This document shows, piece by piece, positions 1,762 through 48,989 of a DNA stretch of 48,989 nucleotides (position 1 is the stretch's first letter; every line of letters begins with the position of its first letter). The DNA lies in NCBI GenBank assembly GCA_017882455.1, contig JADGPL010000023.1:1-48989 (forward strand). The letters run 5' to 3'. Source of the DNA: Solirubrobacteraceae bacterium. GTDB taxonomy: Bacteria > Actinomycetota > Thermoleophilia > Solirubrobacterales > Solirubrobacteraceae. A program made the translations under genes and the position numbers. The notes beneath the pieces were generated by a model. The model worked only from the letters and a program-made list of their open reading frames with translations. It had not been told where the DNA came from and made no database searches.

Positions 1762-2406
1762 TCAGCTCGTGCTCCAAACGTTCCCCGTGTCGCCGAAGCC
1801 GAGCGCGCGCTTGGTGGCTTCGGTGAGGTCGAATTCGCGGCCGGCCACATACGGTCCGCGGTCGACAACCGGCACGCGTATCGAGCGCCCGTTGTAGCGC
1901 AGCGTCACGAGGGTGCCGCAGGGCAGCGTCTTGTTGGCCACTCCCAGCGTGGAGCTGGTGAGCGAGCCGCCGCATGCCATCCCGCCGCCGCCTCCATACC
2001 ACGAGGCTCCGGCCAGGCGGTAGACGCTCAGGTGTCCGAGCGGACGGTGGGCCGGGCGCCCGTAGGCGTCGCCGGCGAAGCGCAGGCGCACCCGCTCGCT
2101 GCCGAGACGGCGTGCGGTGAAGCTCAACCGGAAGCGCCCGCCCGCATGCGTATGCGTGCGGGCGATGGTCCTCCAGCCGTGGCCCACGAGCTCCTGCAGG
2201 GCCACCACCCGTCCCGGGCGTCCTTTGCGACCTTCCTGCAGGGCGCCCGCGATGGTGGCCCTTTGGTCGGCGAGGACGTTCAGCTGGGATGTGCCCACCC
2301 TGAGCGTGGTGTGCATGGGTGCTGGGACTGCGGCGGGAGCGGCCGAGAAGACAGCGACCGGGGCCAGCGCCGGCGCAGGCTGCGCGGGCGTCACTGGGAC
2401 GTACAT
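1762..2406 (-). CDS. RlpA-like double-psi beta-barrel cell-wall protein
   Basis: 214 residues. A short Ala/Pro-rich N-terminus is followed by a beta-rich middle region (about 35-130) and a C-terminal RlpA-like double-psi beta-barrel (about 132-214) with ASWYGGGGGMACGG, LPCGTLVTLRYNGR and VPVVDRGPYVAGREFDLT. These match the Gly-Asp-rich barrel of RlpA, a septal peptidoglycan-processing family. The terminal DLTEATKRALGF is the usual RlpA ending. The ATG has AAGGAGGT 11 nt upstream. The leader carries a c-di-AMP riboswitch and, further up, a CRP-like palindrome, the same combination known for mycobacterial rpfA, which supports a role in wall remodelling. The signal peptide is weak, so export is inferred. 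Confidence 0.85.
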   Translation of the reverse strand: MYVPVTPAQPAPALAPVAVFSAAPAAVPAPMHTTLRVGTSQLNVLADQRATIAGALQEGRKGRPGRVVALQELVGHGWRTIARTHTHAGGRFRLSFTARRLGSERVRLRFAGDAYGRPAHRPLGHLSVYRLAGASWYGGGGGMACGGSLTSSTLGVANKTLPCGTLVTLRYNGRSIRVPVVDRGPYVAGREFDLTEATKRALGFGDTGNVWSTS

Positions 2407-2428
2407 CGTGTGGTGAGACCTCCTTCGT

Positions 2429-2585
2429 GTCCACCTACGGGGTTAGCTGTCGGGCTCACGGCCGGCCCCGCACGCGAACTGGACGCGTGTGGGCCGGGCG
2501 TTACGGCCGCAGCAACGGCCGATTCGCCCCATCCGGACCGCCGCTGCGGCGATCTGGCAATGGGTCCCCCGTTCATCTCCATCCA
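2429..2585 (-). promoter_or_regulatory. c-di-AMP riboswitch (ydaO-yuaA type)
   Basis: Read on the minus strand, the leader of the RlpA-like gene contains the conserved blocks of the ydaO motif in order: GGGGGACCCATTGCC, then GGGGCGAATCGG, then TGAGCCCGACAGCTAACC followed by CCGTAGG. A variable GC-rich hairpin lies between the last two. This class binds cyclic di-AMP and usually switches expression off; in Actinomycetota it precedes wall hydrolases and resuscitation factors. The element ends about 20 nt before the start codon, beside the ribosome site. Edges are approximate. Confidence 0.88.
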
Positions 2586-2620
2586 CGGAGACGACTCGGT
2601 GAGTCGAACAATCGTTCGTA

Positions 2621-2626
2621 AGCCTA
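2621..2626 (-). promoter_or_regulatory. -10 element (TAGGCT) for the riboswitch transcript
   Basis: TAGGCT on the minus strand lies 36 bases upstream of the riboswitch. A start site near 2614-2615 would place the centre of the CRP-like palindrome at about -42, the classical class II activator position. No good -35 is present, as expected for an activator-dependent promoter. Inferred from spacing only. Confidence 0.45.
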
Positions 2627-2646
2627 GCGGGTTACAGATCAGCTGA

Positions 2647-2666
2647 TGTGTGATCTGGGTCACACA
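2647..2666. promoter_or_regulatory. CRP/FNR-family operator, TGTGTGA-N6-TCACACA
   Basis: Perfect 7-bp inverted repeat TGTGTGA/TCACACA with a 6-bp spacer, which is the textbook CRP site (TGTGA-N6-TCACA), also used by mycobacterial CRP. It lies between the divergent RlpA-like and EamA-like genes, at about -42 to the former's presumed start and about -99 to the latter's. Confidence 0.7.
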
Positions 2667-2756: not shown

Positions 2757-3170
2757 ATGCTCCGCTGGCTCGTGCCTACCCTGGTGTACATCGTCGCCGT
2801 GGGGGCGCTTGGAGTCACGAGCAAGCTGGCATTGCGCACGCTCCAATGGCCCGACATGATTCTCTGGAGCGGCGTCGGCTACGTGTTCGTCGCGGCCGTG
2901 CTTCTGGCGATCGGCCAGACCAAGTTGGAGATCGTGACGGGCACCTCCTGGGCGGTGCTGTCGGCGGGCGCGGCGATCGTTGGGCTCGTGGCCCTATATC
3001 TCGCGCTTGGCACCGGGGAGGCGAGCAAGGTCATACCGGTCTCAGCCGCCTACCCCGCCGTCACGCTTGCGCTTTCGGTCTCAGCCCTGTCGGAGCGCGT
3101 GTCGCTGCTGCGCGTCGCCGGGACGGGCCTTGTGATCGCGGGCGTGGTGGTCGTGACGGCGGCTCGCTGA
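2757..3170 (+). CDS. EamA/DMT-family small membrane transporter
   Basis: 137 residues, about half of a full ten-helix drug/metabolite transporter. Four to five hydrophobic helices are visible: LVPTLVYIVAVGALGV, WSGVGYVFVAAVLLAI, VLSAGAAIVGLVALYLAL, the EamA hallmark VIPVSAAYPAVTLALS, and LLRVAGTGLVIAGVVVV at the end. Half-size EamA proteins normally dimerise in antiparallel fashion. Substrate unknown. The gene is transcribed divergently from the RlpA-like gene, sharing a 350-bp control region with the CRP-like site. The next gene begins 76 bp downstream with its own ribosome site. Confidence 0.8.
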   Translation: MLRWLVPTLVYIVAVGALGVTSKLALRTLQWPDMILWSGVGYVFVAAVLLAIGQTKLEIVTGTSWAVLSAGAAIVGLVALYLALGTGEASKVIPVSAAYPAVTLALSVSALSERVSLLRVAGTGLVIAGVVVVTAAR

Positions 3171-44212: not shown

Positions 44213-44220
44213 ACGAACAC

Positions 44221-44529
44221 ATGTTCTCCCCCAAAAGGACATCCAAGCTGGGGCAGCGCGCGCTCGATGCGCTTGGCCTCGTTCGCTCCTTCCTGTTGCT
44301 CGAGGACGACTACGACGTCGACTGGGAGGTCGACCAGGAGGAGCGCTTCGAGGTGGATCATCCGCATCGGGCCGCGCTGCGGCGGGGCGCGGTCGCCGAG
44401 CGGCTCGCGCACAGGCGCCCAGGGCAGCTCGAGGCGCCGCCGCAGGTGTGCATCTCCCCCATCGCTCGCAACGGCTCGGCCCGTGGGCGCGTCGTGGCGC
44501 GCCGTGCGGACTCAGCGCACAGCCGCTGA
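44221..44529 (+). CDS. small protein of unknown function
   Basis: 102 residues. MFSPKRTSKLGQRALDALGL is followed by an acidic patch (LLLEDDYDVDWEVDQEERFE) and a basic C-terminal half (ALRRGAVAERLAHRRPGQLE, ending RGRVVARRADSAHSR). No family recognised. Codon third positions are almost all G or C, which supports this frame over the opposite-strand one. Followed after 10 bases by the glyoxalase-like gene, so probably bicistronic with it. Confidence 0.6.
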   Translation: MFSPKRTSKLGQRALDALGLVRSFLLLEDDYDVDWEVDQEERFEVDHPHRAALRRGAVAERLAHRRPGQLEAPPQVCISPIARNGSARGRVVARRADSAHSR

Positions 44530-45125: not shown

Positions 45126-45344
45126 AAAAGGTCGAGAGACCACGCCTCCCGGTCCTTCAAAACTGCACAGCGCCACAGCGGGTATCGACACCCCTTTCGG
45201 GGATCAAAAAAATCCGTCAAGCCCTCGACCCATTAGTACCGGTCTCCTTCAGACGTTGCTGTCCTTACAGATCCGGCCTATCAACCTGGTGGTCTACCAG
45301 GGGTCTTACTCCCTCTAGGGGATGGGAGAGTTCATCTCGAGGCC

Positions 45345-45377
<33 letters not shown>

Positions 45378-45508
45378 GATCCACACGTAGCTAGCCTGCT
45401 ATGCCCTTGGCAGGACAACAGATACACCAGAGGTGCGTTCATCCCGGTCCTCTCGTACTAGGGACAAATCCTCTCAACTCTCCAACGCCCACGGCAGATA
45501 GGGACCGA

Positions 45509-45789
45509 CAGTTTTGTTACTCACGCGCAGAATCGTGCGCGCGGGCCAGGACATTTCTGCCTGACTCTGCATGTCGCCATGCAGCTCGGACTATATCTTC
45601 GCGGAGGCATCACTCTCCGTGTTCGGCATATAGTCTCTGAGGATTCTGGACTGCTGAACAAGCAATCCAGCCTTTCCTGCTGATTGTCCGCACCGGACGC
45701 ATTTTCACTGCCTCTTGACGAGGCGAGTAGCGCCGGATACTCGGAGTTTCCAGCATATAGCCGAATTTATAGACAGCAACGGTAAATTT
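45509..45789 (-). mobile_element. group I intron A, inserted after 23S position 2604, ORF-less
   Basis: 281 nt between ...GAGACAGT and TCGGTCCC on the minus strand. The 5' exon ends in U and the intron in G, as group I splicing requires. Core elements: GTGCGGACAATCAGCAGG (P4-P5 region, 45671-45696) and the P7 strands CTCAGAGACTATATGCCG (45624-45642) and AAGATATAGTCCG (45587-45599). No endonuclease frame. Confidence 0.9.
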
Positions 45790-45857
<68 letters not shown>

Positions 45858-45867
45858 GCAACTCCAC

Positions 45868-45906
<39 letters not shown>

Positions 45907-45932
45907 GGCCGTCGATGTGGACTCTTGGGCCC

Positions 45933-45975
<43 letters not shown>

Positions 45976-46130
45976 CGGCACTTCCACTTGCTACCGCCGG
46001 ATCACTAAGACCTGCTTTCGCACCTGCTCGACTTGTCAGTCTCGCAGTCAAGCTCCCTTAATACCTTTACGCTCTACACACGATTTCCAACCGTGATGAG
46101 GGAACCTTTGTGCGCCTCCGTTACATTTTG

Positions 46131-46163
<33 letters not shown>

Positions 46164-46444
46164 GAACTGTCCAGCACCCGGATTCACGGAGTGCTGTTAG
46201 AAATCCAATACACCAAGGGTGGTATCTCAAGGTTGGCTCCACGCCGGCCGCAACCAGCGCTTCAAAGCCTCCCACCTATCCTGAGCGAAGTGCACCGAAC
46301 TCCAATACCAAGTTGTAGTAAAGGTTCACGGGGTCTTTCCGTCTAGCCGCGGGTACTCGGCATCTTCACCGAGACTGCAATTTCACCGAGCTCCTCGTTG
46401 AGACAGCGCTGAAGTCGTTACGCCATTCGTGCAGGTCGGAACTT

Positions 46445-47168
46445 CACGTGTTCTCTCGTTATCCGAGAGCGCAGACTATCCCTTCACCTCACCAAGCACC
46501 TTTAGGAGCGTGGCTTCCGAGTGGCGTCGCTTTCCCAGATTCATCTGGTAGGCGATGCCAACGATCTCTCGCAAACCGACGCGCTGCAGATGGTCTCCTT
46601 GCTCGACCATCCGGCATACGTGCGAAAAGCCTGCACAGCTCTTCGCCTTGTATCCCCTCAAGGGGAAGCGCTCAAAGTGCGGCAGGATGACTCCGATGAG
46701 ATCTCCAATTGATCGCACCTCGTACTTGAAGGTGCGGTCTCCTTTCGACTCTCGGATCCAGCCACAACCAAAGAACGTTTGCAGATCTTCCAGTAGTCCT
46801 AGGTCCTTCTCGTTGAGCGAGAGCGAAAACGAGGGCCTCACCTCGAGGCCGGTTCGTAGCTTCGCCCGGAGGGCGAAAGAGACGCAAAAGCATCCCTCAC
46901 CGTCCGTAAGACCTGTGACAAACCAGGGATCCAGCGGTACTGCTACTCCATAGGCGCCCTGTCTTTCGATGAGGGCCGGCGTATTGCGCGTCACATAGAT
47001 TTTCGGAATCTCCGAAGCGTGACACGCCTCTCCTTTCGGATCAGTCGTTAGGGGGTCACTAGGACTTCCCTCGGGATTGCCCGCTGCCACTTTGGCAGGG
47101 AGGGTTTCCCCGATATGAGCCGGTTCTCGACCGTCTCTCGCGAGACGGCGGGGCAAGTGTTGTTGCTT
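46445..47168 (-). mobile_element. group I intron B at 23S position 1951, encoding a LAGLIDADG protein
   Basis: 724 nt between GTCGGGT and AAGTTCCG. U at the 5' exon end and G at the intron end fit group I. The 5' part has AGTGGCAGCGGGCAATCC then CGAGGGAAG, a P4/P5-type core unlike the sequence in introns A, C and D. GGATAGTCTGCGC near the 3' end may be the P7 second strand. The 1951 site is a known intron site in bacteria (for example Coxiella). Confidence 0.88.
46476..46994 (-). CDS. LAGLIDADG homing endonuclease in intron B
   Basis: 172 residues from a GTG at 46994; the frame stays open upstream through the 5' splice site to a TTG in the exon at 47177 (233 codons), but that part is intron core and not protein-like. 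The single LAGLIDADG motif is WFVTGLTDGEGCFCVSF. LQTFFGCGWIRESKGDRTFK and LIGVILPHFERFPLRGYKAK, then VGLREIVGIAYQMN follow the LAGLIDADG_1 family, which works as a homodimer. Presumed target: the intron-free 23S site around position 1951. Lower GC and codon use unlike the neighbouring genes. Confidence 0.88.
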   Translation of the reverse strand: MTRNTPALIERQGAYGVAVPLDPWFVTGLTDGEGCFCVSFALRAKLRTGLEVRPSFSLSLNEKDLGLLEDLQTFFGCGWIRESKGDRTFKYEVRSIGDLIGVILPHFERFPLRGYKAKSCAGFSHVCRMVEQGDHLQRVGLREIVGIAYQMNLGKRRHSEATLLKVLGEVKG

Positions 47169-47188
47169 ACCCGACAAGGAATTTCGCT

Positions 47189-47936
<748 letters not shown>

Positions 47937-47950
47937 ACCTTAGGACCGTT

Positions 47951-48306
47951 CCTTACTGTTACGACTCGGAAAGCTTCTCCGAGCGGTCGGCACATTTCTG
48001 GCCGACTCTCATGGTCGCCCATGAGAGCGGACTATCTCATCCCACTCTCGGTCTGGAGAGCAGGCTCGGCGTATAGTCTCTGAGGATTCGCAACGCCGTA
48101 AACGCTGAGCCAAGACACCGCCAAAGCGGTTGACCGTCCTGGATCAACTGGACACTGCGTCTTTCCTGCTGATTGTCCGCACCCGGCACATTTTCACGGT
48201 ACCGCCCACCTGTGCCCCGAATGGGGTACTTGGGACGGAACTCGTAGTGCGGGATACTCGGATGTTCCAGCATATAGCCGAGTTTTACAACTACCTCGGT
48301 CAACTG
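47951..48306 (-). mobile_element. group I intron D at 23S position 1917, ORF-less
   Basis: 356 nt between CCGTAACTAT and AACGGTCC, ending in G. Core: GTGCGGACAATCAGCAGGAA (48161-48186), P7 strands CCTCAGAGACTATACGCC (48068-48085) and GAGATAGTCCG (48028-48038). Close in sequence to intron C in its first 130 nt. The 1917 site is known from Coxiella. No plausible endonuclease frame. Confidence 0.9.
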
Positions 48307-48989
48307 ATAGTTACGGCCGCCGTTTACCGGGGCTTAGCTTCGCTGCTTCGAACCGAAGTCCTGACAACTCCACGTAACCTTCCGGCACCGGGCAGGCGTC
48401 AGCCCCTATACGTCGTCTTTCGACTTAGCAGAGACCTGTGTTTTTGGTAAACAGTCGCTTCAGCCAATTCACTGCGGCCCTCTCGGACTCCACTCGCGAA
48501 GAGCTTCACCCTACTGGGGCGCCCCTTATCCCGAAGTTACGGGGCGATTTTGCCGAGTTCCTTAACGAGGGTTATCTCGATCACCTTAGTATTCTCTACT
48601 TGCCCACCTGTGTCGGTTTTGGTACGGGCACGCGCTTCCTCCCTAGAGGATTTTCTTGGAGGTATGGCGTCAGGGACTCGCCGGCTTAACGCCAGCTGGC
48701 ATCGCACCTCAGGTTATGCGGCCCCGCATTTAACAAGGGCCACCCCTACATGCTTACCCCAGGACAACCATCGCCTGGGTTCCCCTAGCCTTCCTCGTCC
48801 CCCCATCGGTCAAACGGAAGCGACGTGGTACAGGAATATCAACCTGTTGGCCATCGACTACGCCTTTCGGCCTCGCCTTAGGTCCCGACTAACCCTGAGC
48901 AGACGAACTTTACTCAGGAATCCTTGGGCAATCGGTGGAGGGGATTCTCACCCCTCTTTCGTTACTTATGCCGGCATTCTCACTTCCCA

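What the first reader, a model, noticed from the sequence alone, without database searches (positions are those of the whole stretch)
2429..2666. Cell-wall gene with both a CRP site and a c-di-AMP riboswitch
A perfect TGTGTGA-N6-TCACACA site sits at about -42 of the presumed promoter, and the leader contains a clear ydaO-type c-di-AMP riboswitch. Thus cAMP (activation) and c-di-AMP (repression) could be integrated on one RlpA-like gene. The mycobacterial rpfA gene is known to have both a CRP site and this riboswitch; finding the same logic on an unrelated wall protein suggests convergent wiring of wall-remodelling genes.
Basis: partly seen in the sequence, partly recalled or inferred. Interest (0 to 1): 0.7.

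Follow-up and report, generated by a model that had tools for sequence, protein, structure and literature searches.

The report
Three-signal leader of a wall gene

Summary
A c-di-AMP riboswitch (RF00379, 51.1 bits, threshold 38) lies at 2611..2417(-). A perfect CRP palindrome lies at 2647-2666, centred about 42 nt upstream of the predicted start of an RlpA-like (DPBB_1) gene. In 18/18 same-genus orthologues with upstream sequence the palindrome is kept (>=9/10) at the same spacing; its half-sites are 97% conserved, against about 47% for flanking bases. Among 69 riboswitch-bearing leaders of this paralogue (17 genera), 40 have the CRP site; of 77 other riboswitch leaders, 1 does.

CRP plus ydaO control of a wall gene is already known (S. 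coelicolor rpfA, C. glutamicum nlpC). The same motif precedes lexA, uvrA and other SOS-type genes in this genome, and lexA in 29 of 30 relatives examined. It sits at the same place in 23/69 leaders, in 0/77 other riboswitch leaders, and shows no RNA-hairpin covariation.

Best reading: cAMP-CRP activates, LexA represses, c-di-AMP switches off translation. DisA is the only diadenylate cyclase found, so LexA and c-di-AMP may both report DNA integrity. Binding and expression are untested; the LexA box's central bases are atypical.

The parts
2647..2666 (.). CRP-type palindrome TGTGTGATCTGGGTCACACA, centre about -42 from the predicted start
   Evidence: Perfect match; 18/18 genus orthologues keep >=9/10 at the same spacing; half-sites 97% conserved against 47-50% around them
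2621..2626 (-). -10-like TAGGCT (TAnnnT)
   Evidence: TAnnnT starts 20-22 nt after the palindrome in 38 of 40 leaders; no sigma-70 consensus promoter found
2614..2614 (-). predicted transcription start (within about 2 nt), inferred from the -10 box
   Evidence: Inference only; no 5' end data
2605..2618 (.). LexA (SOS) box CGAACAATCGTTCG, about -4 to +10
   Evidence: Same motif precedes lexA, uvrA, IMS polymerase, SRAP and dnaB in this genome and lexA in 29/30 relatives examined; present at this place in 23/69 homologous leaders, 0/77 other riboswitch leaders
2417..2611 (-). c-di-AMP (ydaO/yuaA) riboswitch aptamer
   Evidence: RF00379, 51.1 bits, gathering 38; 15 of 18 genus loci scanned also pass the gathering score
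2419..2425 (-). Shine-Dalgarno AAGGAGG, a few nt after the P1 3' strand; no terminator between
   Evidence: Read directly, conserved in orthologues; no terminator-like site
1762..2406 (-). RlpA-like DPBB domain protein, 214 aa
   Evidence: PF03330 DPBB_1 E 8.8e-14; PA4485 (4avr) E 1.2e-4 in PDB sequences

Best explanation
The leader is a three-input control region for an RlpA-like wall gene. (1) cAMP-CRP binds at about -42 (class II position) and activates a promoter that has a -10 box but no recognisable -35 box. (2) LexA binds the box over the start site and blocks initiation until DNA damage triggers its cleavage. (3) The transcript begins with a c-di-AMP aptamer that, when ligand-bound, keeps the adjacent Shine-Dalgarno site from being used, so translation needs low c-di-AMP. 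DisA is the only diadenylate cyclase found in the genome. Because DisA stops making c-di-AMP at damaged forks in B. subtilis, inputs 2 and 3 would both open when DNA is damaged: a double lock, with carbon/energy state as the throttle. Shown: presence, spacing, conservation and gene-specificity of the three elements, and the presence of the matching regulators and second-messenger enzymes. Inferred: binding, sign of each input, translational mechanism, and the physiological meaning.
For: Riboswitch RF00379. CRP site conserved 18/18 in the genus at fixed spacing, half-sites 97% against 47-50% around them. Among 69 leaders of this paralogue in 17 genera, chosen by protein and having a recognisable aptamer, CRP in 40 and LexA box in 23 (shuffles: means 0.016 and 0.036), against 1 and 0 of 77 other riboswitch leaders. 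All 26 extra family loci found by the CRP+aptamer pattern alone and classifiable are this paralogue. Genome has one CRP-type DNA-binding regulator (cNMP_binding + HTH_Crp_2) with recognition helix SRESASRFL, aligning to mycobacterial, corynebacterial and E. coli CRPs; class III cyclases; LexA; a single DAC/DisA next to a RadA-like ORF (by eye). The motif precedes lexA in 29/30 relatives examined. Literature: C. glutamicum nlpC riboswitch acts on translation and lacks a terminator (PMC9960051); DisA suppresses c-di-AMP at stalled forks (PMC12448304); c-di-AMP inhibits LexA self-cleavage in M. smegmatis (PMC11653572).
Against: No binding or expression data for any of the three inputs. The LexA box has perfect arms but a centre (AATC/GATT) outside the purine-N-purine-pyrimidine pattern of the lexA boxes; on a lexA-trained matrix it scores 16.3, below the canonical boxes (22-30) but above uvrA (13.0). 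The LexA box is absent from 7 of 17 genus leaders in the count and from most leaders outside it, though its 3' half often remains. The four other perfect CRP palindromes in the genome lie mostly in or at the edge of coding sequence and do not outline a regulon. The window protein lacks a clear signal peptide.
Confidence: 0.68

Rival explanations
1. Two inputs only: CRP plus c-di-AMP riboswitch are functional, and the CGAACN4GTTCG palindrome is not a working LexA site (weak, relict, or bound by another regulator).
For: CRP and aptamer are more widely kept than the box (40 against 23 of 69); the box centre is unlike the lexA boxes and its matrix score is intermediate; the 3' half alone is kept in many leaders.
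Against: Perfect arms at the same place in several genera, expected 0.036 by shuffling, 0/77 in other riboswitch leaders; the same motif precedes lexA family-wide; a g15 leader in which Rfam no longer finds the aptamer still has CGAACGCTCGTTCG at the corresponding place.
Confidence: 0.22
2. The CGAACN4GTTCG palindrome is an RNA hairpin at the 5' end of the leader rather than a DNA-protein site.
For: It lies at the 5' end of the leader and could form a 5-bp stem with a 4-nt loop (sequence).
Against: In near-matches 148 arm pairs are unchanged, 25 broken, 6 G-U and only 1 compensatory; with the predicted start at 2614 the 5' arm is mostly not transcribed; the identical sequence type precedes lexA.
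Confidence: 0.04
3. The CRP site serves the divergent EamA-like gene (2757-3170 +), not the RlpA-like gene.
For: The site lies between divergent genes, about 90 nt from the EamA start.
Against: In the relatives searched with flanking sequence the EamA gene was not found beside this gene, yet the CRP site keeps fixed spacing to the riboswitch.
Confidence: 0.04

Closest known systems
Streptomyces coelicolor rpfA (St-Onge et al. 2015; described in PMC9960051 and PMC10117811)
   Same: Wall-hydrolase gene with ydaO-type c-di-AMP riboswitch and cAMP input; multi-level control
   Different: Rpf lysozyme-like enzyme; also ppGpp input; premature termination reported rather than an SD-adjacent platform; no LexA box mentioned in the text read
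Corynebacterium glutamicum nlpC/cg2402 (PMC9960051)
   Same: Wall-hydrolase gene with CRP-type regulator GlxR plus a c-di-AMP riboswitch without terminator, acting on translation
   Different: NlpC/P60 peptidase; also MtrA and EsrR sites; no LexA input described in that paper
Mycobacterial rpfA (CRP site and ydaO riboswitch; from memory, not tested here)
   Same: CRP plus ydaO on a wall enzyme
   Different: Unrelated enzyme fold; no LexA box known to me
LexA-controlled wall gene Rv2719c (chiZ) of M. tuberculosis (from memory)
   Same: SOS control of a wall-acting protein
   Different: No riboswitch or CRP site known to me

Membership tests
c-di-AMP riboswitch RF00379 (ydaO/yuaA) | Covariance-model score above the gathering threshold over the whole aptamer | tested here: met
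   51.1 bits against 38, model 1-134
c-di-AMP riboswitch RF00379 (ydaO/yuaA) | c-di-AMP binding and OFF regulation | not testable with these tools
   Needs in-line probing and reporter assays
CRP class II activator site | TGTGA-N6-TCACA palindrome centred near -41.5 | tested here: met
   Perfect palindrome; -10 spacing conserved in 38/40 leaders; start site itself predicted
CRP class II activator site | A CRP with cNMP domain and R-E-xxx-R recognition helix in the genome | tested here: met
   L071 protein: PF00027 + PF13545, SRESASR
CRP class II activator site | cAMP-dependent binding and activation | not testable with these tools
   No binding data
LexA/SOS operator | CGAAC-N4-GTTCG arms | tested here: met
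   Perfect arms at 2605-2618
LexA/SOS operator | Same motif at lexA and other SOS-type genes of the organism | tested here: met
   lexA, uvrA, IMS, SRAP, dnaB; lexA in 29/30 relatives examined
LexA/SOS operator | Central tetranucleotide RNRY | tested here: not met
   AATC/GATT; matrix score 16.3 against 22-30 for canonical boxes, 13.0 for uvrA
LexA/SOS operator | Damage induction | not testable with these tools
   No expression data
RlpA (septal lytic transglycosylase) | DPBB domain | tested here: met
   PF03330 E 8.8e-14
RlpA (septal lytic transglycosylase) | C-terminal SPOR domain as in E. coli RlpA | tested here: not met
   Only DPBB_1 found by Pfam, so called RlpA-like only
RlpA (septal lytic transglycosylase) | Export signal | tested here: inconclusive
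   By eye the N-terminus lacks a classical signal; several orthologues have a plausible one

The most novel reading that the evidence does not exclude
A wall-remodelling gene is under a coherent double lock on chromosome integrity, LexA at transcription and DisA-made c-di-AMP at translation, with cAMP-CRP as activator. This arrangement is kept in several genera of the family and would be the first riboswitch known to me to be stacked with an SOS box.
Probability: 0.45. Interest if true: 0.8.

Novelty: new variant of a known kind. Interest (0 to 1): 0.62.

Why it matters
c-di-AMP and the SOS response are linked biochemically (DisA pausing at stalled forks in B. subtilis; c-di-AMP inhibiting LexA cleavage in M. 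smegmatis), but I found no single gene reported to read both in cis. This leader offers one, attached to a peptidoglycan-acting protein, so the question whether c-di-AMP riboswitches on wall genes report DNA integrity becomes testable by removing one element at a time.

Tried and rejected
CRP regulon: the four other perfect palindromes in the genome do not outline one. RNA folding gave no clear SD-sequestering switch: P1 is rare (about 3%) in the ligand-free ensemble and the alternative 5' hairpin is not clearly conserved, so the translational mechanism rests on analogy. RNA-hairpin reading of the LexA-type box rejected for lack of covariation. EamA as the CRP target rejected. The primary paper on S. 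coelicolor rpfA non-coding RNAs (St-Onge and Elliot 2017) is not held. Searches for papers joining LexA and c-di-AMP riboswitches found no such leader, in an open-access library only.

Full report
OBSERVATION. The window is contig C43 of a 3.3 Mb draft genome. The riboswitch is real: RF00379 at 2611..2417 (-), 51.1 bits, gathering 38. The palindrome TGTGTGATCTGGGTCACACA at 2647-2666 is perfect and unique in the window; the core TGTGAN6TCACA occurs at 5 places in the genome, with 0 for the reversed control. The gene 1762..2406 (-) encodes a DPBB_1 protein.

CONSERVATION OF THE CRP SITE. In 18 of 18 same-genus orthologues with upstream sequence the palindrome is present (12 with 10/10, 6 with 9/10), about 200 nt before the GCTAACC of the aptamer. 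The ten half-site positions are 97% conserved, the N6 50%, the 20 nt upstream 47%, the spacer 47%. A TAnnnT box starts 20-22 nt after the palindrome in 38 of 40 CRP-bearing leaders, which places the centre near -42, a class II position. The start site is a prediction.

GENE SPECIFICITY. I fetched riboswitch loci not selected for CRP: 77 leaders on NlpC/P60, M23, other DPBB and unclassified genes. One has the CRP site and none has the LexA-type box. In contrast, 69 leaders of this RlpA-like paralogue from 17 genera, chosen by protein similarity and having a recognisable aptamer, have CRP in 40 and the LexA-type box in 23, both in 21; shuffled leaders give means of 0.016 and 0.036. A pattern search for CRP+aptamer over 232 genomes of the order hit 45 genomes with no reversed-control hits; 26 further family loci from it that could be classified are all this paralogue. 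Two loci in another family of the order have the same wiring on a DPBB gene with extra domains; a third, in that same family, is on an NlpC-type gene (L009). So the wiring is old within the order.

THE MISSED ELEMENT. The alignment of leaders shows CGAAC-N4-GTTCG between the -10 box and the aptamer, here 2605-2618. In this genome the motif occurs at 20 places against 7 for the control, and the best-scoring ones lie just upstream of lexA, an IMS polymerase, SRAP, dnaB, a DUF5131-type ORF and, with a lower score, uvrA. In 30 lexA loci of the family, 29 have it just upstream; the thirtieth is probably a coordinate slip of mine. Hence it is the LexA box of these bacteria. In the wall-gene leaders it starts 26-30 nt after the CRP core, overlapping the predicted start. 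Its arms do not covary like an RNA stem (148 unchanged, 25 broken, 1 compensatory). Its centre is atypical and its matrix score intermediate, so affinity may be moderate.

REGULATORS PRESENT. One CRP-type DNA-binding protein, with the R-E-xxx-R recognition helix; its alignments include mycobacterial and corynebacterial CRP-family structures and E. coli CRP. Class III cyclases. LexA. One DAC domain, the DisA type, beside a RadA-like ORF. The other four riboswitches of the genome precede further wall-type genes.

MECHANISM. CRP at -42 suggests activation; LexA over the start suggests repression. The Shine-Dalgarno AAGGAGG lies a few nt after the aptamer and no terminator is seen, so translational OFF control is the best guess, as proposed for C. 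glutamicum nlpC (PMC9960051). My folds do not show the switch. Physiologically, DisA suppresses c-di-AMP synthesis at stalled forks in B. subtilis (PMC12448304) and c-di-AMP inhibits RecA-mediated LexA cleavage in M. smegmatis (PMC11653572). If these hold here, damage opens both the LexA and the c-di-AMP gates. That is inference.

KNOWN OR NEW. CRP plus c-di-AMP riboswitch on a wall gene is known (S. coelicolor rpfA; C. glutamicum nlpC with GlxR). A LexA box stacked on such a leader was not found in the open literature searched. I therefore rate this a new variant of a known kind.

LIMITS. Many relatives are draft genomes with some contamination. The 77 control leaders are biased towards high covariance scores. 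The 69 leaders are those with a recognisable aptamer; orthologues without one were left out. Genera are anonymous codes and not independent samples. Aptamer calls in relatives used a regular expression; cmscan confirmed 15 of 18 genus loci and 12 of 20 family loci above gathering, the rest being below threshold. Nothing here measures binding or expression.

Noticed in passing
window 45334-48989 (-), intron at 45567-45799: The partial 23S rRNA gene takes 3656 nt for 1644 model positions, with a 357-nt insertion and an RF00028 group I intron (71.1 bits): probably several insertions.
   Followed up: no
window 44214-44227 and about 44168: Two further LexA-like boxes (matrix score 21.4 for the first) upstream of a MurA-like ORF on the minus strand (ends 42646), another wall gene; may lie inside a coding sequence.
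   Followed up: partly
window 2340-2406 (-): The N-terminus of the window's RlpA-like protein and of several close relatives (MYVPxxPAQPAPALAP) lacks a classical signal peptide, while several other orthologues have a plausible one.
   Followed up: partly
L072, L075, L315 (own genome contig C4): An MFS-cNMP fusion, a cNMP domain in an ORF of unclear type and a class III cyclase lie within about 12 kb, perhaps a separate cyclic-nucleotide module.
   Followed up: no
L363 about 693-706 (also L349, L351): Genus g15 keeps a LexA-type box in the leader of the orthologue although no CRP site is seen and Rfam does not find the aptamer (L351, L363 scanned).
   Followed up: partly
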